This document shows, in pieces, positions 48,512 through 56,811 of a stretch of 64,000 nt of DNA. Positions within the stretch are counted from its first letter, which is position 1. Every line of letters starts with the position of its first letter. The stretch covers positions 2,195,501-2,259,500 of the forward strand of contig NZ_CP049107.1 in the NCBI RefSeq assembly GCF_011044255.1. The letters are read 5' to 3'. The notes beneath the pieces were generated by a model. It saw nothing but the letters and a program-made list of their open reading frames with translations. It was not told the origin of the DNA and searched no databases. A program made the translations under genes and the position numbers. The DNA comes from Rhizorhabdus phycosphaerae (GTDB lineage Bacteria > Pseudomonadota > Alphaproteobacteria > Sphingomonadales > Sphingomonadaceae).

Positions 48512-49184
48512 TCCGCTCTCGATCCGGCGCCTCTACGGGCGCCGGCAGGGGCACAAGCTGCGGCAGGGACAGGCGGAACTGGTCGAGCGGCTGCTGCCCG
48601 AGATCAGCGTGCCGGAAGCCGGCGCGCTCGACGCGCCCGTGCTGTTCGGCGACGACCGCCCGCTGGAACTGGAGATCGGCTTCGGCAAGGGCGAGCACAT
48701 GGCCTGGCAGGCCGACCAGCGCCGGGCCCATGGCTTCATCGGGTGCGAGCCCTTTCTCGACGGGGTGGTCGGCGCGCTGATGAAGATCGACGAGCTCGGC
48801 CTCGACAATGTGCGGCTGCACATGGGCGACGCGATCGACGTGCTCGAACGCCTGCCCGACGCCTCGCTCGAGCGCGCCTGGCTGCTCCATCCCGACCCCT
48901 GGCCCAAGGCGCGCCACGCCAAGCGCCGCTTCATGAACGACGGCCCGATCGGCCTGATCGCGCGCAAGATGAAGCCGGGCGGCGAGTTTCGCTTCGGCAC
49001 CGACCACCCCGTCTATGTCCGCTGGGCGATGATGGTGATGGGCCGCTCGCCCGATTTCGAGTGGCTGGGCGAAAGCCCGCGCGACTTCCTCGTCCGCCCC
49101 GACGACTGGCCCGAAACCCGTTACGAGGCCAAGGCGCGCGCGAAGGGGCATGAGGTCTGGTATTTTCGATATCGCCGCCGTTGA
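48504..49184 (+). CDS. trmB: tRNA (guanine46-N7)-methyltransferase TrmB
   Basis: This 226-residue enzyme methylates G46 in tRNA variable loops. Family signatures: LEIGFGKGEHM (SAM loop), FIGCEPFLDGVVG, LLHPDPWPKARHAKRRF and the C-terminal TRYEAKARAKGHEVWYFRY. The start ATG overlaps the preceding methyltransferase gene. It is convergent with the lasso-peptide cluster. Confidence 0.97.
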   Translation: MNDPLSIRRLYGRRQGHKLRQGQAELVERLLPEISVPEAGALDAPVLFGDDRPLELEIGFGKGEHMAWQADQRRAHGFIGCEPFLDGVVGALMKIDELGLDNVRLHMGDAIDVLERLPDASLERAWLLHPDPWPKARHAKRRFMNDGPIGLIARKMKPGGEFRFGTDHPVYVRWAMMVMGRSPDFEWLGESPRDFLVRPDDWPETRYEAKARAKGHEVWYFRYRRR

Positions 49185-49252
49185 TGCGCCAGGGCACGAT
49201 TCTACCGAGGTGAGCTGACATCCTTTGGGCCAGCCCATGGACGCTGCCCGCG

Positions 49253-50158
49253 CTACATTCCCGTGTGGCGAGGATCGCCTGTAAGCTGGCGGATCAGCGC
49301 TGGGGCTGCGTCAAGCCGGGCGATGTCGCGTGGTCGGCGGAGGACGTACAGGGGAACGGTGCGGAGCAGGGTCAGGCAGTGCTGCCAGTGCCGCCCGGAC
49401 AGCCCCATGGCCTCTACCATCTCCGGCCGGTAGGTGGCCTCGCCGACCAGCCGCTTGAGGGCATCGAGGCCGCAGATGCGGCGTACCTCCGGCTCTCCCC
49501 ATTCGAGCAGGAAAATCGCGTGGAGCGAGACCGGCGCCCTTCCGGTGCCGGCCACGGGCAGCTGGAACTTGTCGCGTCCGTCCAGAACAGGGGTCAGCTC
49601 CTCCGGAACCGCGCCGCCCAGCGCCAGCATCTCCCTCCAGAGCCGAAGGCGGGGCATCGAGGGATGGACCTGCGCGACCGGTGACGGATCGACCCGGCAG
49701 AGATCGTCGCTCACAAGACTATAGCCTTCCCGCAGGAGGCTTGCCGCCATGCTCGACTTCCCCGCCCCGGACGGCCCGCAGAAGGCCAGCGCGTTCTTGT
49801 CCCGGGCGACCACCGAGGCATGAAGGAGGAGGATGTCCCGCTGAAGGCAAAGGGCGTTCCAGGCGGTTCCGAGAAGGAAGGGCCGCCACTGGCTTAGGGG
49901 AACATCGGGCTCCGGAAAGACCGTAATGCGACAGCCATCCTCCACATGGAAGGTGGCGAAGCCGGAAATGACCAGCCAGAGATCGCGCCCCTCCGCAAGC
50001 GCACAGCTTGTGGCGGGAAGGCCCGGCTGCGCCTCCGCCAATGCGATCCGGACATCCTCACCCGCTCCGGGCTCCACCCGAAAGCTTTCCCATTCGGGAA
50101 CCTCGAAACCGCAGGCCAACCGGATGCCGGATAGCGCATAGACCCTGCCCTCGTTCAC
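49253..50158 (-). CDS. HPr-kinase-like P-loop protein of the lasso-peptide cluster
   Basis: This 301-residue protein has an N-terminal domain without clear matches and a C-terminal HPr kinase/phosphorylase-like domain. P-loop GPSGAGKSS spans 128-136, a preceding His lies in LLHASVV (113) and a Ser-Asp-Asp block in SLVSDDLCRV (150-155). In paeninodin-type lasso clusters such kinases phosphorylate the C-terminal Ser of the precursor, and this precursor ends in Ser. The GTG at 50158 gives a GTGA overlap with the cyclase stop, the same coupling style as two junctions upstream. An ATG at 50185 is possible. It is the last gene of the cluster. Confidence 0.85.
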   Translation of the reverse strand: MNEGRVYALSGIRLACGFEVPEWESFRVEPGAGEDVRIALAEAQPGLPATSCALAEGRDLWLVISGFATFHVEDGCRITVFPEPDVPLSQWRPFLLGTAWNALCLQRDILLLHASVVARDKNALAFCGPSGAGKSSMAASLLREGYSLVSDDLCRVDPSPVAQVHPSMPRLRLWREMLALGGAVPEELTPVLDGRDKFQLPVAGTGRAPVSLHAIFLLEWGEPEVRRICGLDALKRLVGEATYRPEMVEAMGLSGRHWQHCLTLLRTVPLYVLRRPRDIARLDAAPALIRQLTGDPRHTGM

Positions 50159-52038
50159 CGGACGCCTTCCTCTTCCAGCCAGCACAGGAACCGCCCCATG
50201 GTGAGACCGCCCACCAATATGCTGATGGGGGCGGCACGGTCTGCCAGCAGGTCCTCAGCGCACCGTCGCATCCGCCCAAGGTCGAGCGCCTCGCATGCTA
50301 GGGCGTTCTGATCCAGCCGTTCCAGATCGGCCATCAGCTGGCCGGGATGGGCCTTCAGCCGCGCCATCATATCGTACCCCTGCAGCCCCCGGATGCGAGA
50401 CGTGCGGATGCTCTCGGGCAGCAGCCCCCGCAACATCTCGCGCATCATGGTCCGCGGCTCGCCTTGGTGGTGGAACAGGCGATTGGGAAGCTGCAGGCAG
50501 AATTCCGCGACGCGCCGGTCCGCCAGCGGGTGCCGCCACTCAACCCCGGTGAGATGGGTGAAGGCATGATCCACAAGACCGATATCCTGGCGCTGGAGCA
50601 GATACAGCATCCTGTATCGCTCATCGGCCTGCGGCGGCGGCATGTAGGTGGAGAACCAGACCGGCCCCGCCGCATCCAGCTCCTGCGCGTCCGCAAAAGC
50701 GGGATGAACGGGGTGATGGTCACGCCACGGACGGGCCGTCGCGGCAAATGGATGTCCGCGAAACATAAGCATGCGCCGTCGCAGCGGCTCGGGCAGGAGA
50801 AGCCAACCCGCAGACAGCGCGCGACGCACGCTGAACTCCCGCACAAGGCCGGGCCAGTCCCGCGCGGCCAGGGCGGCGAGAAAGGGCGCTCCGCCGGCCC
50901 GGCTGGCGGTCAGATTCCCTTGCATGCCCGTCAGCATGACCCCGGCCCCGCTCTCGCGTGCCGCCTTCAGCGCGGTGATCATCCAGTCGAGATTGCCAAT
51001 ATTGGAAAAATGACGCTCCTGCACACGCACCATGTCGTCCGCGCCATCCAACGGATAGCCCGACTCGAAAGGCAGGATGCGGCTGTCGAGACCTGTGGAG
51101 CTGCTGGCGAGGTCCTGGACGAGGGTGCTCTCATCCGCCCGCCAGCCCTCTGGCGGGACGCCGGCGCCGGGCGCCGTAACATGGGTGAAGGCGAGGACAT
51201 GCGGGCGCGCCCGCACCGCAAGCGCAGCGATCCCGGCGGAGTCGAGCCCGCCGCTGAGCATGAGAGCTGCCGGTTCAGCCTGCGGCATTTGCTCATCCAC
51301 CACGCGGGCGAGGAGATCCCGCAACGCGACGGCATGATCTTCAAGGCTGCCGGTGGGCAAAGGGCGGGAAAGATCCACCTCCCACCATCGCCGGACCACA
51401 GCCGGCAGCCGGCCCTCCTTCTCCAGCACGCAGCCCGTCGGGAGACGCCGGATGCCGGCAAATAGCGTCACGTGGTCCTCGCCCGAAAGGCGGATGAGGT
51501 TCATGGCCAGCGTGTGCCGGTCCAGCCGACGGTCGACCCAGGGCAAGGCGAAGAGGCCGCGCGGCATGGTCGCAAAGGCAAGGCCATCGCCAGCCTCATG
51601 ATAATGCAGCGGCGGCCCGACGATGGCAGAACGGCCGAGCACGAGCCGCCGCGTCTGTGGCGCCCACGCCGCGAATGCGAAGGCTCCTGCGATCCGCGTC
51701 AGTGCCGACACATCCCAACGGCGCCAGGCGGCAAAGAGCAGACCGGCATCATCCTCTTCCTCAAGGACCACGCCCGCAGCCTTGAGCTCGGAGCACAGCT
51801 CGGCTCTATTGTCGATGCGCGCGTCCGCCGCAAAGACAAGACCCGTGCGGACGCATGTCATCGGCCGGTTCGTGGCGGGGCGTCGCGCGAGCCGACGGGT
51901 GCCCATGCCCGCCATGACATCGGCCCAGAGGCCACCAGCCTCATCGAAGGGCCCCGCCAGGGCGACGCGCATCCGGGCCAGAAGGCCTTCGCCCTCCGGC
52001 ACGCCGTCAGGGCGGACATAGCCGAAGAGCGCACTCAT
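50155..52038 (-). CDS. Lasso-peptide macrolactam synthetase (asparagine-synthetase-like cyclase)
   Basis: This 627-residue protein resembles asparagine synthetase B. The N-terminal region looks like a glutaminase domain, but residue 2 is Ser (MSALFGY) in place of the catalytic Cys of true amidotransferases. The synthetase domain has the PP-loop SGGLDS (262-267), used to adenylate the Asp/Glu side chain. In lasso clusters this enzyme closes the ring between Gly1 and Asp8. It overlaps the genes on both sides by 4 bases. Confidence 0.9.
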   Translation of the reverse strand: MSALFGYVRPDGVPEGEGLLARMRVALAGPFDEAGGLWADVMAGMGTRRLARRPATNRPMTCVRTGLVFAADARIDNRAELCSELKAAGVVLEEEDDAGLLFAAWRRWDVSALTRIAGAFAFAAWAPQTRRLVLGRSAIVGPPLHYHEAGDGLAFATMPRGLFALPWVDRRLDRHTLAMNLIRLSGEDHVTLFAGIRRLPTGCVLEKEGRLPAVVRRWWEVDLSRPLPTGSLEDHAVALRDLLARVVDEQMPQAEPAALMLSGGLDSAGIAALAVRARPHVLAFTHVTAPGAGVPPEGWRADESTLVQDLASSSTGLDSRILPFESGYPLDGADDMVRVQERHFSNIGNLDWMITALKAARESGAGVMLTGMQGNLTASRAGGAPFLAALAARDWPGLVREFSVRRALSAGWLLLPEPLRRRMLMFRGHPFAATARPWRDHHPVHPAFADAQELDAAGPVWFSTYMPPPQADERYRMLYLLQRQDIGLVDHAFTHLTGVEWRHPLADRRVAEFCLQLPNRLFHHQGEPRTMMREMLRGLLPESIRTSRIRGLQGYDMMARLKAHPGQLMADLERLDQNALACEALDLGRMRRCAEDLLADRAAPISILVGGLTMGRFLCWLEEEGVR

Positions 52039-53003
52039 GCCACCGGCTCCACGCGCTGCAGCAAGTCGGCATGATCAAAGTGGAGAAAGCAGCAGCGTTC
52101 GTCATGCAGCCCGGCGGCCACGGTCCAGCGGTTCTCGGAGAACTCGGCACCCATGGGATAGAGTACGCGTTCCGCGTCGCGGTTGAGGGGGAGCGCGTCC
52201 CCTGCGCGCCGGGCTGGCGCGCGCGCGATCGAAACCGGCGTGTGGCACAGGGGAGCGAAAGGGGGCGATGCCTGGAAGCCGTAGAAGCCCATTTCGTAGC
52301 GATGCAGCGGGCGGCCGCCCTTGTGACGCATAGCGTGGAGCACCCGTTTCCAGCGCGGCGCTGGCACCAGAAGGTGGAAGAAGGAATAGAAGACATCCCC
52401 CACCCGGATGGGCGGCGTTCCCCCGCGCGGTTCCGAGAGGCTGGCCAAGGGCGCCGTCCAGTCATGCCTCGCCATCATCTCGCTCTGCACGGATGCGCCG
52501 GCACGCAGATGGAGGCGAAGCACCACATGGGGCCGGATACTGTAGACAGCCAGAAGCGTGTCCCCGTCGGGGGAGAACAGCATCCAGTTCTTCTCGACTG
52601 GCCTTCGTCCTTCAAGCTCCAGCGGCTGCGCCGCGGCGCACGGGAGCAGCGAGTGCGGATCGATCTCGACAAGGAAGATGCTGTTCGGGCGTGGCCGGTC
52701 GCCGGTGTTGAAGTGAAGGAGCAAGCGGTCTCCCAGGGTGCAGAAGCGCGGATCGGCAAGCCACGCCCCGCCTTCGGCCAGATGGTCGGACAGCGGCTGG
52801 ACGCTGCCGGAGACCGGCTCCAGCGCCGCATCCAGGGCACAGATGGCGAGCCGCCGCCGCCCGTCCGCCAGCACCAGGCGATAGGCCATGATGCGGCGGC
52901 CGCCAAACGTCGTCATGCCCGGATTGAACATATGGACCGGCCCCCTAGCGGCGATGGTCCGCCAAGCCTCCGGCACGAACCGGTCGCGCGGCAGCACGAT
53001 CAT
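52035..53003 (-). CDS. GH130-like five-bladed beta-propeller protein
   Basis: This 322-residue protein has a repeated blade pattern and short motifs seen in GH130/GH43-type propellers: FNPGMTTFGGRRIMAYR, WLADPRF, EKNWMLFSPDGD, YSIRPH, GGTPPI, YSFFH and YPMGAEF. GH130 enzymes are mannoside phosphorylases or hydrolases. Here the protein lies between a pyruvyl transferase-like gene and the cyclase, so it may act on a sugar attached to the peptide or serve as a binding protein. That role is inferred, and catalytic residues were not verified. Confidence 0.72.
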   Translation of the reverse strand: MIVLPRDRFVPEAWRTIAARGPVHMFNPGMTTFGGRRIMAYRLVLADGRRRLAICALDAALEPVSGSVQPLSDHLAEGGAWLADPRFCTLGDRLLLHFNTGDRPRPNSIFLVEIDPHSLLPCAAAQPLELEGRRPVEKNWMLFSPDGDTLLAVYSIRPHVVLRLHLRAGASVQSEMMARHDWTAPLASLSEPRGGTPPIRVGDVFYSFFHLLVPAPRWKRVLHAMRHKGGRPLHRYEMGFYGFQASPPFAPLCHTPVSIARAPARRAGDALPLNRDAERVLYPMGAEFSENRWTVAAGLHDERCCFLHFDHADLLQRVEPVA

Positions 53004-53857
53004 CGCGCGCCCTCCTGCCGGTAGGGAAAGGCCGCGCGAAAAGGCTCGAGCTCAGGCGGCCTGGCCCACTGGCCTGTCCTGTCCCACCAGGCCTCCCCTG
53101 CCCCGACGGTTCGCACCAGGGCAATGTCGATGTCGAGGAGAGCCGCAAGGTCCTGCCACTTCGCCGGCGCATCGATGCCGTCATCCGCATAGGCGGCCCA
53201 AGGAGTGCCATAGGCCTGGCACAATATCGCCCCATGCAGGCTGCCGGTCAGGACGAAACGCGCCCCGGCCAGGGTGCGCACGCTGCTTTCCACGCCCCTT
53301 GGCCAAATGGCAGCAGACAACAGTCGCCCGGCGGCCTGCTGCAGCTTGGCGGACGTGAGGCGTCCCTGCCGCCGCACGACCCAGGGGGAGAGAATGGCGT
53401 CAGCCCCCGTTGCGGCGAGGCGCTCGGCGGGCAACTGCGTCCGCACGCGAAGGCAATGGGGGAGGACCAGCCGCAGGCCGTGTCGCATGGCGGGAGGCGG
53501 AAGAATCGCCGGCAACAGGAAGCCCGGGTCGGACTGCGGAAGAGTGCCGGACAGCCCAAGCGCCCGCGCGGTGAGAGGACCGCGCACGCCGTGGAATGTC
53601 AGCCGGTCCAGGTTGCGGTCAGACACCGATCCGCCTCGCCAGCCACATCCCCAAACATCGATCGGACCGGCGATCCGATCGAGATCGGCATCATCCAAAA
53701 GCGAGCCGATGACCAGCAGTGTCCGGCCGGCATTGGCCGCGGCCTCGGGGCGGGGCGCGCAGTCATGGCCAAAAGCACGCAGGATCAGGGGGACGAGCGA
53801 ATCTCCGAGATTGAGAACGAACGCATCCCGGCCCCAATAATGGCAGTTCAGGTACAT
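53000..53857 (-). CDS. Polysaccharide pyruvyl transferase-family protein
   Basis: This 285-residue protein starts MYLNCHYWGRDAFVLNLGDSLVPLIL, with the NxGD pattern of pyruvyl transferases, then LVIGSLLDDAD and GCGWRGG. GVRGPLTARALGL and the C-terminal FVLTGSLHGAILCQAYGTPWAAY follow; all belong to the CsaB/WcaK family (PF04230). Such enzymes add ketal pyruvate to sugars. The ATG at 53857 overlaps the glycosyltransferase end by 10 bases. Pyruvylation of a peptide-borne sugar is a hypothesis. Confidence 0.85.
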   Translation of the reverse strand: MYLNCHYWGRDAFVLNLGDSLVPLILRAFGHDCAPRPEAAANAGRTLLVIGSLLDDADLDRIAGPIDVWGCGWRGGSVSDRNLDRLTFHGVRGPLTARALGLSGTLPQSDPGFLLPAILPPPAMRHGLRLVLPHCLRVRTQLPAERLAATGADAILSPWVVRRQGRLTSAKLQQAAGRLLSAAIWPRGVESSVRTLAGARFVLTGSLHGAILCQAYGTPWAAYADDGIDAPAKWQDLAALLDIDIALVRTVGAGEAWWDRTGQWARPPELEPFRAAFPYRQEGAR

Positions 53858-54897
53858 GCGGCATCCACGGGACGGGCAAGACGCTGCTGCACCGCGTGCC
53901 ATACCTGTTCGAGGGAGATGCCCCGCATGCAAGGGTGGATGGCCAGCGGACAGACGGCATGTCCGCAGCCGGCGCAGGGAACCTCGAAGCGCAGCACGGT
54001 AACATCGCGCCCTATCGGGTCCCACGCCCCCACCACACAGCGCCCGCCCTGAATCTCGATAACGGGGACACCCAGGGCAGCGGCGAGATGGCTGGTGCCC
54101 GTGTCCAGGCCGACCACAAGATCGCAACGGGAAAGCAGGCGCGCGGTCGCGACGAGACTCAACGTCCCCGCGGCCACCAGTCCTTCCCCCCAACGCGCGC
54201 GCAGCCTTTCGGCCACCCCGCTTTCGGAGGGGCCGCCGCAGATGACCAATTCGTACCGCCCCTCGCGAATGAGACGCTCACCCAGGGCGATGAAGCGATC
54301 CTCCGGCCAGTGATTGGCCTGTGCTCGCGCCCCGGGACAGATGGCCACCAGCCTTCGTCCGGGCCGCGCATTGGCCGCGAGCCATGCATCGACATCGACA
54401 GCTGCCGGTGGGAGCAGTCGCGGCAGGTAAGGCGAAGCGGGGCATGGCAGGCCGGCAGCAGCCAGATTGGCGAGACGGCGGGCTGGCTCGTGCGGAGAAC
54501 TGTAGATGGGCTGGGCTTGTCCAGGAAGGCCCATGGGACGGCCGAGGCCCGCCAGACGACAGAAAGCGTCGAGCAATATCCGGGTGACGCGCCGGGGGGC
54601 GGAAAGATCTACATAGACGGCACGGTCCATGCCCAACCGATGGACCTTGCGCAGCAGGGCCAGCCAGCGCCAGACATGCCGCAGCCGCGGAAGGAACAGC
54701 AGCCCTTCCAGCCGACCCCAGCCGATGAGAAGCTCAGCCGGATGGGATGTGCCCGCAGGGGCGGGCCGCGTTAGAAGCCAATATTCGGCGTCCTCGCCGA
54801 AATGGGCCCGGACGGCGTGAATGGCGGGAAGGGCCGCGATGCCCGATCCGATGGTGGTCTGCCAGCCAAGAAGCAGGATAGGCCGCTTCTTTGGCAC
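53848..54897 (-). CDS. Glycosyltransferase family 9 (heptosyltransferase-like)
   Basis: This 349-residue GT-B-fold protein has an N-terminal GWQTTIGSGIAALPAIHAV and a C-terminal donor-site motif GLDTGTSHLAAALGVPVI (around 263-280). A Cys-rich tail (Cys308, 311, 316 and 323) is seen in some GT9 members. These enzymes usually transfer heptose or related sugars to LPS. Immediately downstream of the lasso precursor gene it is more likely to glycosylate the lasso peptide, by inference. Confidence 0.85.
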   Translation of the reverse strand: MPKKRPILLLGWQTTIGSGIAALPAIHAVRAHFGEDAEYWLLTRPAPAGTSHPAELLIGWGRLEGLLFLPRLRHVWRWLALLRKVHRLGMDRAVYVDLSAPRRVTRILLDAFCRLAGLGRPMGLPGQAQPIYSSPHEPARRLANLAAAGLPCPASPYLPRLLPPAAVDVDAWLAANARPGRRLVAICPGARAQANHWPEDRFIALGERLIREGRYELVICGGPSESGVAERLRARWGEGLVAAGTLSLVATARLLSRCDLVVGLDTGTSHLAAALGVPVIEIQGGRCVVGAWDPIGRDVTVLRFEVPCAGCGHAVCPLAIHPCMRGISLEQVWHAVQQRLARPVDAACT

Positions 54898-54923
54898 AAG
54901 CGGGTCGCAGCACTGAGCTTGCG

Positions 54924-55112
54924 TCAGCTGGCGCAGGTACTTCCGCCGTCGGTATTGAGAAAATTAGAACCGCCCGTCTGCGCGCGTGACATCTCCTCGA
55001 CCACGACCGCCGGCTTCACCCAAGCGGCCCGGGGCGCCATCTCTGTGCCGCAGGAAGCGGATGCCGAATTCCGGGATTGATCGGAAGATCCGGCGTTCAG
55101 GTTGGAGTCCAT
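54924..55112 (-). CDS. Lasso-peptide precursor (A gene)
   Basis: This 62-residue peptide has a leader with the RRE-recognition pattern W31-x-x-P34-x-V36 (matching YxxPxL), Thr46 at the -2 position and a predicted core GSNFLNTDGGSTCAS (48-62). Gly1 and Asp8 can form an 8-membered macrolactam, leaving a GGSTCAS tail with one Cys and a C-terminal Ser. The ATG at 55112 follows GAGGA at 8 bases; an ATG at 55133 (seven more residues) has a poor site. It lies between B2 and the glycosyltransferase. The core boundary is predicted, not known. Confidence 0.85.
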   Translation of the reverse strand: MDSNLNAGSSDQSRNSASASCGTEMAPRAAWVKPAVVVEEMSRAQTGGSNFLNTDGGSTCAS

Positions 55113-55182
55113 TCTCGGTTCCTCGTTGGGCATATTGTTGGACTTATTCTATCCCCGCTTCCGGAACGTTGCAATCTCAGGG

Positions 55183-55614
55183 CTACTCCTCAGTCGCTTG
55201 TAGGCCCCCAACACAAGAGCGGCGCATAGTCCGGCGCCTGATCCCCCCCACGACAGGGCCAATGGCAGATGTCAGCCAGACATGCCCGGTCAGCCCCCTC
55301 GCTGCGACCGTTGCTGCACCATAATGAAACCATGTGGGCACCCGGCGGCGGCGCAGCATGAGATGCGCGGCGATGGCCCGGTGAAAGCAGGAATCCCTCA
55401 ACATGCCCCGCCGCCAGACCCACAGGATTGCCGCCTGTATCGACGCGATGGCGATCGCCTGCTCCTTCGCTGGGGCCGGCGGGCTGGCGAGAGGGCGGGA
55501 GAGGAACGGCTTGAGGCGGCGGAACGGCAGGACGACCAGGATCAGGCGGGCCAGGGCGACAAAGACGACGGCCTCCAGGCGCAAGGCCCATCTTTGCCAG
55601 CAGCGCGCTGTCAT
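55183..55614 (-). CDS. Lasso-peptide B2 leader protease (transglutaminase-like)
   Basis: This 143-residue protein has an N-terminal hydrophobic segment (VVFVALARLILVVLPF) and a transglutaminase-like core with Cys76 (RDSCFHRAIAAHLMLRRRRV) and His111 (TGHVWLTSAIGPVVGG). The third catalytic residue, Asp, expected after the His, is not obvious. B2 proteins cut the leader after the Thr-x site. The ATG overlaps the B1 stop (ATGA), so B1 and B2 are co-translated. Confidence 0.87.
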   Translation of the reverse strand: MTARCWQRWALRLEAVVFVALARLILVVLPFRRLKPFLSRPLASPPAPAKEQAIAIASIQAAILWVWRRGMLRDSCFHRAIAAHLMLRRRRVPTWFHYGAATVAARGLTGHVWLTSAIGPVVGGIRRRTMRRSCVGGLQATEE

Positions 55615-55910
55615 GCCGCGGCGTGCGTAACGGCGAGCAGCCCCAGCTCTCTCAACGTATGGACAAGCTCTGCCACATCGTCGGCGCACTGCTGCGGCTC
55701 CACCACGAATGCCGTGCGCAAAGCTTCGCACAGCGCGCCGAACGTGATCGGCTCTGCCATGGCCATCCACGCATGGCGAGCAACGACGTTGAGCGAAAAC
55801 ACTTTCCCGGCCTCGGCCGAAATCATGATCAGCTCATTGTCGAGATCGCTAAACACGATGTTCCGCGCTCTGACCAGCAACGCATCATCTGGAAAGGAGG
55901 CTACCGACAT
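55611..55910 (-). CDS. PqqD-like RiPP recognition element (lasso B1)
   Basis: This 99-residue protein has the PqqD/RRE fold pattern: DLDNELIMISAEAGKVFSLNVVARHAWMAMAEPITFGALCEAL and CADDVAELVHTLRELGLL. It binds the leader of the precursor and brings it to the B2 protease and cyclase. It is the first gene of the cluster, and its stop overlaps the B2 start. No strong ribosome-binding site precedes its ATG. Confidence 0.9.
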   Translation of the reverse strand: MSVASFPDDALLVRARNIVFSDLDNELIMISAEAGKVFSLNVVARHAWMAMAEPITFGALCEALRTAFVVEPQQCADDVAELVHTLRELGLLAVTHAAA

Positions 55911-56377
55911 GGCCGAAACTGTCTCTATGTCGCTATCATATCACTAAAGGAGCATGGGGACTTGCCCCTACTATAGGGGGCGGCACATGACAATCATTCG
56001 CCCGGCACCACCCATATGCGTGCTGTCGAAGCCTGGACTGACCCGAGACCCGCTACGCAGCCGGGGCTCCCGCGAAGATTCATTCGACCTGGTATTTTCG
56101 GTACAGACGGCGGTAGGGCGCCGGGCTTGAATCAATAGGCCGTTTCTTGCAGGTGGCTCTCGTCTGACGGGGCACCAAGAGATCACATTCAGCCGAATCT
56201 GATTGTGCGAGAAAGCGGGACGCTGGAATCGCCCGCCTCTTTCCATCGGCTGCTCGCATACGAGTCCAGGAATCGTTCGGACCATAAGTCGTGCGTTTTC
56301 CGTCGCATCGGCGACTTACTGTTGCACTCACAGCAACAACGCTGACTTTTTACCTACATTGAAGGGGGGCCTCGCCG
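55911..56377. other. Non-coding region upstream of the lasso-peptide cluster
   Basis: About 470 bases between B1 and a truncated VOC gene. It should hold the promoter of the minus-strand cluster, but no clear -35/-10 pair was recognised. On the plus strand a 12-codon frame (55909-55947, MAETVSMSLSYH) has a perfect AAGGAGG 8 bases upstream. A 58-codon frame at 55954-56130 follows with AAGGAG only 1 base before its ATG. Neither is called as a gene. No mobile-element ends were seen. Confidence 0.4.
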
Positions 56378-56671
56378 GTGGTTCGCCGCTTCGACCGGCC
56401 CGACGGCTCGCTGATGCACGCTGAGCTGCGCATCGACGACAGCATCGTCATGATCGGCGGTGGCGCGACCCCATATCGCTCGTCGGAAGTCCATCTGCAT
56501 CGGTACGTTTCCGATGCCCAGTCCCCTTATGATCGGGCCATCGCAGCCGGCGCAGAGGCGGTTCAGACGCCGCTGCGCAAGGCAGATGATGACGATCTGC
56601 GGGTCGGGTTTCGCGACCCGGCCTGCCATATCTGGTGGGTTGCCAAGCAATTGGCCGCCCGGAAAGTCTGA
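56378..56671 (+). pseudogene. Truncated VOC-family (glyoxalase/bleomycin-resistance-like) gene
   Basis: The 97-residue frame starts at GTG and reads RRFDRPDGSLMHAELRIDDSIVMIGG and later [13 protein letters not shown], as in PhnB-like VOC proteins. These are normally about 150 residues and have an N-terminal strand-helix block absent here. An in-frame TGA lies about 15 bases before the GTG, so the 5' third is lost. It may mark an old recombination junction beside the lasso cluster. Confidence 0.7.
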
Positions 56672-56811
56672 GGCCCGTCAAAGCGAACTGCACGGGGTTG
56701 CAGGGAAGGTGGGCCTCTGCGATAGCAGCCGAGGGTGCTCGTCCGGGTGATGACGGGCAGGTTTCTTCGCTGGTCGGGCCGCCAGCGGGCAGTCCCATGC
56801 CCGGAGTTTCG

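What the first reader, a model, noticed from the sequence alone, without database searches (positions are those of the whole stretch)
49253..55910. Compact lasso-peptide cluster with kinase and three sugar-type tailoring genes
Eight minus-strand genes, most overlapping, encode RRE (B1), B2 protease, precursor, GT9, pyruvyl transferase-like, GH130-like propeller, cyclase and HPr-kinase-like protein. Precursor, B1, B2 and cyclase define a lasso-peptide system. The interposed sugar enzymes, translationally coupled to the cyclase, are unusual. I know HPr-kinase-containing lasso clusters (paeninodin type), but not one combining GT9, PF04230 and a GH130-like protein.
Basis: partly seen in the sequence, partly recalled or inferred. 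Interest (0 to 1): 0.92.

Follow-up and report, generated by a model that had tools for sequence, protein, structure and literature searches.

The report
Lasso-peptide operon with sugar-modifying enzymes
A bacterium related to Sphingomonas has acquired a compact set of eight genes that should make a knotted (lasso) peptide carrying a phosphate on its last serine, and three of the genes encode sugar-handling enzymes of kinds not reported together in such clusters, pointing to an unusual sugar-decorated peptide whose structure can be tested directly.

Summary
Confirmed. Eight tightly packed minus-strand genes (55910 to 49253) encode B1 (RRE), B2, precursor, GT9, PF04230, a GH130-fold protein, lasso cyclase and an HprK/PEPCK-fold kinase. 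The precursor has the expected leader motif, Thr(-2), a G1-D8 ring and the C-terminal Ser found in all eight sphingomonad precursors compared. Most lasso loci fetched from the family carry this kinase, usually with sulfotransferase, PF14907 nucleotidyltransferase or ABC genes. None of the others has GT9. GH130-like plus PF04230 genes lie beside a lasso locus in only two further species (sister genus), and that GH lineage is separate. Elsewhere GH130-like and PF04230 genes are paired or fused without lasso genes, so the module was probably recruited from glycan synthesis. The operon is a 7.5-kb insertion at the 3' end of trmB, absent from the closest relative and flanked by a 90-nt imperfect trmB repeat. 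Caveats: B2 as sequenced leaves the homologous frame at a G7 run after its Cys and His; there is no exporter; donor sugars and attachment site are unknown. Best reading: a new variant of the phosphorylated/phosphoglycosylated (paeninodin/pseudomycoidin) lasso class; glycosylation of the peptide is inferred, not shown.

The parts
55611..55910 (-). B1, discrete RRE (PqqD-like leader-binding protein)
   Evidence: PF05402 48.8 bits, over cut-off; NF033536 E=1.9e-13
55183..55614 (-). B2 leader peptidase (transglutaminase-like); ATGA overlap with B1; leaves the homologous frame at a G7 run, 55243-55249
   Evidence: PF13471 and NF033537 over cut-off; Cys and His aligned with 10 homologues; a -1 step at G7 gives the homologous tail
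54924..55133 (-). precursor A: leader ...WVKPAVVVEEMSRAQTG, core GSNFLNTDGGSTCAS (ring G1-D8, C-terminal Ser15)
   Evidence: direct reading; aligned with 7 sphingomonad precursors, P41 and C-terminal Ser invariant
53848..54897 (-). GT9-family glycosyltransferase
   Evidence: PF01075 84.5 bits; donor-domain match to WaaF 1psw E=4.3e-7; only 3 of 298 genomes of the order match at E<=1e-15
53000..53857 (-). PF04230 polysaccharide pyruvyl transferase-like protein, ATG 53857
   Evidence: PF04230 32.5 bits, over cut-off; 40% identical to the Chloroploca protein next to a GH130-like gene
52035..53003 (-). GH130/GT108-fold five-bladed propeller protein
   Evidence: AF2 pLDDT 87.6; VIA Z 26.4 to GH130, 21.3 to GT108; invariant D84 (DPR), H210 and E137-KNW
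50155..52038 (-). lasso cyclase (asparagine synthetase homologue)
   Evidence: PF00733, PF13537; NF033535 E=1.6e-59
49253..50158 (-). HprK/PEPCK-fold precursor kinase; ORF open from 50185, likely GTG start 50158 (GTGA overlap with cyclase stop)
   Evidence: H122, K143, D160, D161 invariant among 11 kinases; model pLDDT 87.1, VIA Z 17.7 to PEPCK, Foldseek hits to HprK
49104..49193 (+). left repeat: 3' end of trmB at the island boundary
   Evidence: the repeat finder D1, 90 nt, 71% identical to the right copy
56036..56125 (+). right repeat: degenerate copy of the trmB 3' end carrying the tail seen in relatives
49172..56692 (.). inserted island; relative G551 has trmB and nhaA directly adjacent here
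   Evidence: blastn of window against L073: matches end at 49171 and resume at 56693, about 19 bp apart in G551

Best explanation
This is a horizontally acquired operon for a phosphorylated, probably glycosylated lasso peptide. Shown by sequence: gene content, order, precursor architecture, kinase motif, GH130 fold, insertion at trmB. Inferred: B1 binds the W.KP leader; the kinase puts one or more phosphates on Ser15 of the linear precursor; B2 cuts after ...QTG; the cyclase joins Gly1 to Asp8, giving a 15-residue lasso (calculated [M+H]+ 1412.57, +79.97 per phosphate). GT9, the GH130/GT108-fold protein and the PF04230 protein then build and cap a short sugar on the peptide, most likely at or near the phosphorylated C-terminal Ser: GT9 and the GH130/GT108-fold enzyme as sugar transferases, PF04230 as a pyruvyl-ketal (or related) capping enzyme. 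They take the place of the PF14907 nucleotidyltransferase or sulfotransferase of related clusters.
For: Core families pass curated cut-offs. C-terminal Ser is invariant in 8 precursors from kinase-type or related loci, the known signature of kinase-tailored precursors (PMC9266682, PMC8498205). Kinase catalytic His, Lys and Asp-Asp intact, HprK/PEPCK fold. The sugar genes lie inside the lasso operon, between A and C, with 4-nt overlaps, and the island holds nothing else, so they are not part of a longer polysaccharide locus. GH130 fold with conserved active-site Asp and His. In the order all 3 GH130-like-bearing species have a kinase-type lasso locus within about 10 kb, in two separate GH lineages; in the sister genus 2 of 5 cyclase-positive and 0 of 55 cyclase-negative species have it (Fisher p=0.006). 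Precedents: pseudomycoidin hexose on phospho-Ser (PMC9266682); glycosylated lasso peptides and GT-rich lasso loci (cited in PMC13352647 and PMC13381572).
Against: No product is known. GH130-like/PF04230 pairs exist without lasso genes. In the two sister-genus species the sugar genes sit in a larger polysaccharide region with a flippase, and those species share ancestry. B2 is frameshifted as sequenced and no exporter is encoded. GT9 donor unknown: HldE-like gene present, GmhA model finds nothing.
Confidence: 0.62

Rival explanations
1. The lasso and kinase genes make a phosphorylated lasso peptide, but GT9, PF04230 and the GH130-like protein act on a separate glycan (cell surface or exopolysaccharide) and share the operon for regulatory or self-protection reasons, or by chance of the transfer.
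For: GH130-like + PF04230 pairs or fusions lie in capsule/polysaccharide-type loci without lasso genes; PF04230 members usually act on polysaccharides (family name); G268/G966 loci adjoin polysaccharide genes and a flippase.
Against: In the window the three genes sit between precursor and cyclase with 4-nt overlaps, on an island with no other polysaccharide gene, no flippase or polymerase. In two GH lineages the association is with kinase-type lasso loci.
Confidence: 0.22
2. The island is decaying or silent: B2 is altered in its tail by a real frameshift, the exporter is lost, and no mature peptide is made.
For: B2 leaves the homologous frame at G7; no ABC transporter on the island, whereas 6 of the family lasso loci and those checked in the sister genus have one; the right trmB copy is degenerate.
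Against: The other seven genes are intact, with conserved catalytic motifs; B2 keeps its Cys and His; G runs are common sequencing-error sites, and the run is also a possible -1 slip site that would restore the homologous tail.
Confidence: 0.15

Closest known systems
Pseudomycoidin (Bacillus pseudomycoides; A, B1, B2, C, D, K and PF14907-type PsmN)
   Same: Kinase-type lasso cluster, C-terminal Ser, split B1/B2, enzymes adding sugar after phosphorylation (PMC9266682, PMC8498205)
   Different: No PF14907 gene and no exporter here; instead GT9, PF04230 and a GH130-fold protein, inside the operon between A and C
Paeninodin and the Sphingobium yanoikuyae SyanA/SyanK cluster
   Same: HprK-like kinase with His-Lys-Asp-Asp, precursor ending in Ser; Syan is a sphingomonad example (PMC9266682)
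   Different: No sugar enzymes reported for them in the reviews read
Glycosyltransferase-rich lasso loci and iteratively glycosylated lasso peptide (Sun et al. 2025, cited in PMC13381572 and PMC13352647; original not held)
   Same: Lasso cluster with glycosyltransferases modifying a Ser
   Different: Enzyme families not readable here; no GT9/PF04230/GH130 combination known to me
G268 and G966 lasso loci (sister genus, found here)
   Same: Kinase-type lasso genes next to PF04230 and GH130-like genes
   Different: Also PF14907, GT2s and a flippase (and an ABC transporter in G966); no GT9; sugar proteins 25-30% identical to the window's and from another GH branch
GH130 mannoside phosphorylases / GT108 mannosyltransferases
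   Same: Five-bladed propeller, DPR Asp and His conserved
   Different: 8-15% identity, no PF04041 hit for the window protein, extra invariant EKNW motif

Membership tests
Lasso-peptide biosynthetic cluster | RRE (B1) and B2 leader peptidase | tested here: met
   PF05402, PF13471, NF033537 over cut-off; B2 tail frame is uncertain
Lasso-peptide biosynthetic cluster | Asparagine-synthetase-like macrolactam cyclase in the same operon | tested here: met
   PF00733, PF13537; best NCBIfam model is the lasso cyclase NF033535, under its strict cut-off
Lasso-peptide biosynthetic cluster | Precursor with Thr(-2), N-terminal Gly and Asp/Glu at core position 7-9 | tested here: met
   AQTG|GSNFLNTD: Thr(-2), Gly1, Asp8
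Lasso-peptide biosynthetic cluster | Threaded macrolactam product | not testable with these tools
   needs expression and MS/NMR
Kinase-type (paeninodin/SyanK) phosphorylated lasso class | HprK-like kinase with His-Lys-Asp-Asp | tested here: met
   H122, K143, D160, D161 invariant in 11 kinases; PEPCK/HprK fold
Kinase-type (paeninodin/SyanK) phosphorylated lasso class | Precursor C-terminal Ser | tested here: met
   core ends ...TCAS; Ser invariant in 8 precursors
Kinase-type (paeninodin/SyanK) phosphorylated lasso class | Phosphate on that Ser | not testable with these tools
   needs MS
Pseudomycoidin type (K plus PF14907) | PF14907 nucleotidyltransferase in the cluster | tested here: not met
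   eight genes on the island, none PF14907
GH130 / GT108 | Five-bladed propeller of this clan | tested here: met
   VIA Z 26.4, rmsd 3.4 over 278 residues to 5b0q; Z 21.3 to GT108 6q4w
GH130 / GT108 | PF04041 sequence profile over its cut-off | tested here: not met
   window protein has no Pfam hit; a Rhodobacteraceae homologue passes, 27.4 vs 26
GH130 / GT108 | Active-site Asp (DPR) and His | tested here: met
   D84 and H210 align with the GH130 DPR and YH motifs and are invariant in the homologues aligned
PF04230 pyruvyl transferases | Family profile over its cut-off | tested here: met
   32.5 vs 25.3 bits
PF04230 pyruvyl transferases | Pyruvyl transfer activity | not testable with these tools
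   needs enzyme assay
GT9 LPS heptosyltransferase | NCBIfam equivalog cut-off for RfaC/RfaF/III | tested here: not met
   80.5 vs 134.6 bits for heptosyltransferase II

The most novel reading that the evidence does not exclude
The GH130/GT108-fold enzyme uses the phosphoserine of the lasso precursor in place of free phosphate, placing a mannose-like sugar on the peptide phosphate (replacing PsmN), GT9 extends it and PF04230 adds a pyruvate ketal: a capsule-like, doubly acidic glycophosphate tip on a ribosomal peptide made by enzyme types not known from RiPPs.
Probability: 0.12. Interest if true: 0.8.

Novelty: new variant of a known kind. Interest (0 to 1): 0.55.

Why it matters
If the three enzymes act on the peptide, lasso-peptide tailoring would gain two enzyme types not reported for RiPPs in the papers searched (a GH130/GT108-fold transferase and a pyruvyl transferase-like enzyme), and the known phosphorylated-Ser handle would be a general attachment point for larger glycans. 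With one small operon, defined overlaps and computed masses, the question can be settled by expression and mass spectrometry. It would also link lasso peptides with polysaccharide biosynthesis in sphingomonads, where their natural role is unknown.

Tried and rejected
Polysaccharide locus that merely includes lasso-like genes: rejected for the window, because the island holds only these eight genes. Phage or defence reading: no PADLOC hits for the kinase and sugar genes, no plasmid relative of the GH130-like protein. A two-indel repair of B2 (used as a hypothetical row) was dropped: one -1 step at G7 already gives the homologous tail. Closer complete relatives of the operon: none found in the 14 genus genomes (PF04230 protein), 398 family or 298 order genomes. 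GmhA by TIGR00441: no match; other GmhA-like isomerases not excluded. Papers: full-text searches for lasso peptides with pyruvyl transferase, heptose or mannose found no such cluster; the library lacks most subscription journals. The Zhu 2016, Zyubko 2019 and Sun 2025 originals are not held, so they are cited through reviews. The draws of genomes are samples, not all species.
Full report
What is there. Eight minus-strand genes run from 55910 to 49253: B1, B2, A, GT9, PF04230, GH130-like, C, K. B1 (PF05402), B2 (PF13471, NF033537), GT9 (PF01075), PF04230 and the cyclase (PF00733, PF13537) pass curated Pfam cut-offs, and the best NCBIfam models for B1, B2 and C are lasso models. The genes are packed: B1/B2, PF04230/GH130-like and GH130-like/C share an ATGA, and C/K share GTGA if K starts at 50158 (reading). 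This is far more than chance ORFs.

Precursor. A encodes MPNEEPRMDSNLNAGSSDQSRNSASASCGTEMAPRAAWVKPAVVVEEMSRAQTG-GSNFLNTDGGSTCAS. It has the (Y/W)..P leader motif, Thr(-2), Gly1, Asp8 and a C-terminal Ser. Candidate precursors from seven other sphingomonad lasso loci all end in Ser, the signature of kinase-tailored lasso precursors according to reviews (PMC9266682, PMC8498205). My search for candidates favoured Ser-ending peptides by score, so the invariance is somewhat enriched by that choice; the G966 and G141 candidates were found without that criterion.

Kinase. Pfam and NCBIfam HprK models hit below cut-off, but His122, Lys143, Asp160 and Asp161 are invariant in 11 homologues, matching the His-Lys-Asp-Asp motif shown by mutagenesis in lasso kinases (PMC9266682). 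The AF2 model (pLDDT 87.1) matches PEPCK (Z 17.7) and HprK chains, the superfamily of HPr kinase.

GH130-like protein. No Pfam hit in the window protein. A 7-sequence alignment gave a model of pLDDT 87.6; the top PDB matches are GH130 mannoside phosphorylases (Z 26.4, 278 residues, rmsd 3.4) followed by GT108 GDP-mannose-dependent mannosyltransferases (Z 21.3). The profile aligns the GH130 DPR Asp and the phosphate-side His with invariant D84 and H210 (the catalytic roles of these GH130 residues are from my own knowledge). GH130 and GT108 share fold and inverting mechanism, and GT108 enzymes are both transferases and phosphorylases (PMC8950772), so the name 'hydrolase' should not be read as function. 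A Rhodobacteraceae homologue passes PF04041, and an Acetobacteraceae one gives a weak hit to beta-mannosyltransferases PF12141 around the EKNW motif.

Where else the sugar genes occur. GH130-like plus PF04230 are neighbours in Chloroploca (42-43% and 40% identity, the closest relatives), and fused into one protein in Acetobacteraceae, Rhodobacteraceae and genome G736, which has export genes of a capsule type by reading; no lasso genes are near. So the pair is an established glycan module. In the window's own order it is rare: 2 of 298 order genomes, 1 of 398 in the family draw, 3 of 385 in the class draw. Both order hits have a kinase-type lasso locus beside it: the window, and G268, where B1, B2, C, K, a Ser-ending precursor and PF14907 precede GT2, PF04230, GH130-like and a flippase. 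A scan of all 60 held species of that genus found one more GH130-like gene, in G966, again next to a lasso locus; cyclase-positive species were 5 of 60, and both GH-positive ones are among them (Fisher p = 0.006; the two species share ancestry). The other three lasso loci in that genus lack the sugar genes but have K, PF14907-like and ABC-transporter homologues. The window GH and PF04230 proteins group with Chloroploca, the sister-genus GH with Rhodobacteraceae/G736, so the association with lasso loci probably arose twice. G268/G966 adjoin further polysaccharide genes, which weakens them as evidence for tailoring.

Lasso loci in the family. Of the loci fetched by cyclase similarity in the family draw (13 of 398 genomes), a kinase of this family is encoded at 10, plus the window and G268; sulfotransferase genes at 5, PF14907 at 6 (plus G268), ABC genes at 6. 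No other locus encodes a GT9 relative. The window operon is thus a kinase-type lasso operon with a different decoration cassette.

An island at trmB. In the closest genus relative, G551, trmB and nhaA are adjacent; the window has 7.5 kb between them. The boundaries carry a 90-nt, 71% identical repeat of the trmB 3' end (49104-49193 and 56036-56125). The left copy ends with a synonymous replacement encoding the same residues RYRRR; the right copy holds the tail sequence seen in relatives. This looks like site-specific insertion at the 3' end of a conserved gene. No integrase is on the island; in G398 an integrase-like ORF (by reading) follows trmB by about 100 nt.

B2 caveat. Against ten homologues, B2 loses the homologous frame at G7 (55243-55249), after the conserved Cys and His; a -1 step at G_GGG_GGG gives ...VVGGDQAPDYAPLLCWGPTSD, which resembles the homologous tails. 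Sequencing error, real frameshift and slippage cannot be told apart here.

How it probably works. Shown: gene content, motifs, folds, operon, insertion. Inferred from known systems: phosphorylation of Ser15 on the linear precursor, leader removal, G1-D8 closure. Inferred with less support: sugar transfer by GT9 and the GH130/GT108-fold protein and capping by the PF04230 protein, with the phosphorylated Ser as likely site by analogy with pseudomycoidin. Donors are open: an HldE-like gene lies just outside the window, but the GmhA model finds nothing.

Novelty. Glycosylated and GT-associated lasso clusters are known (pseudomycoidin; Sun et al. 2025 cited in PMC13352647 and PMC13381572). The combination here is not in any paper found, within the limits of an open-access library. 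I rate it a new variant of a known kind.

Noticed in passing
window 49104-49193 and 56036-56125; L073; L074: The trmB 3' end looks like an insertion hotspot in this genus: the lasso island is flanked by a trmB repeat, the closest relative has the empty site, and G398 has an integrase-like ORF right after trmB.
   Followed up: partly
window 55243-55249: G7 run in frame as G_GGG_GGG inside B2; a -1 step restores the tail seen in homologues. Error, decay or slippage unresolved.
   Followed up: partly
L006, L007, L009, L051: Single proteins of about 800-970 aa fuse a GH130-like propeller to a PF04230 domain in several alphaproteobacteria; invariant EKNW motif, weak similarity to fungal-type beta-mannosyltransferases (PF12141).
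   Followed up: partly
L040 (own genome C1:3130000-3149900): A second lasso-like locus in the same genome: cyclase, PqqD-like protein, sulfotransferase-like and cupin/JmjC-like ORFs (by reading) and a possible precursor ending ...DQDPNRVS; no kinase or B2 found by similarity.
   Followed up: partly
L087 (own genome C1:2181500-2195500, just left of the window): HldE-like kinase/adenylyltransferase gene next to TPR proteins with glycosyltransferase-like ends and a large adhesin-like ORF (by reading): possible protein heptosylation system.
   Followed up: no
L043, L088, L053, L089: In two species of the sister genus a kinase-type lasso locus with PF14907 sits inside a polysaccharide region between galE/Wzc-like genes and recG.
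   Followed up: partly
L005, L008 (Candidatus Chloroploca sp. Khr17): Loci with several sulfotransferase-like genes, GT2 and GH130-like genes, in L005 two of them flanking a PF04230 gene; probably a sulfated, pyruvylated polysaccharide.
   Followed up: no
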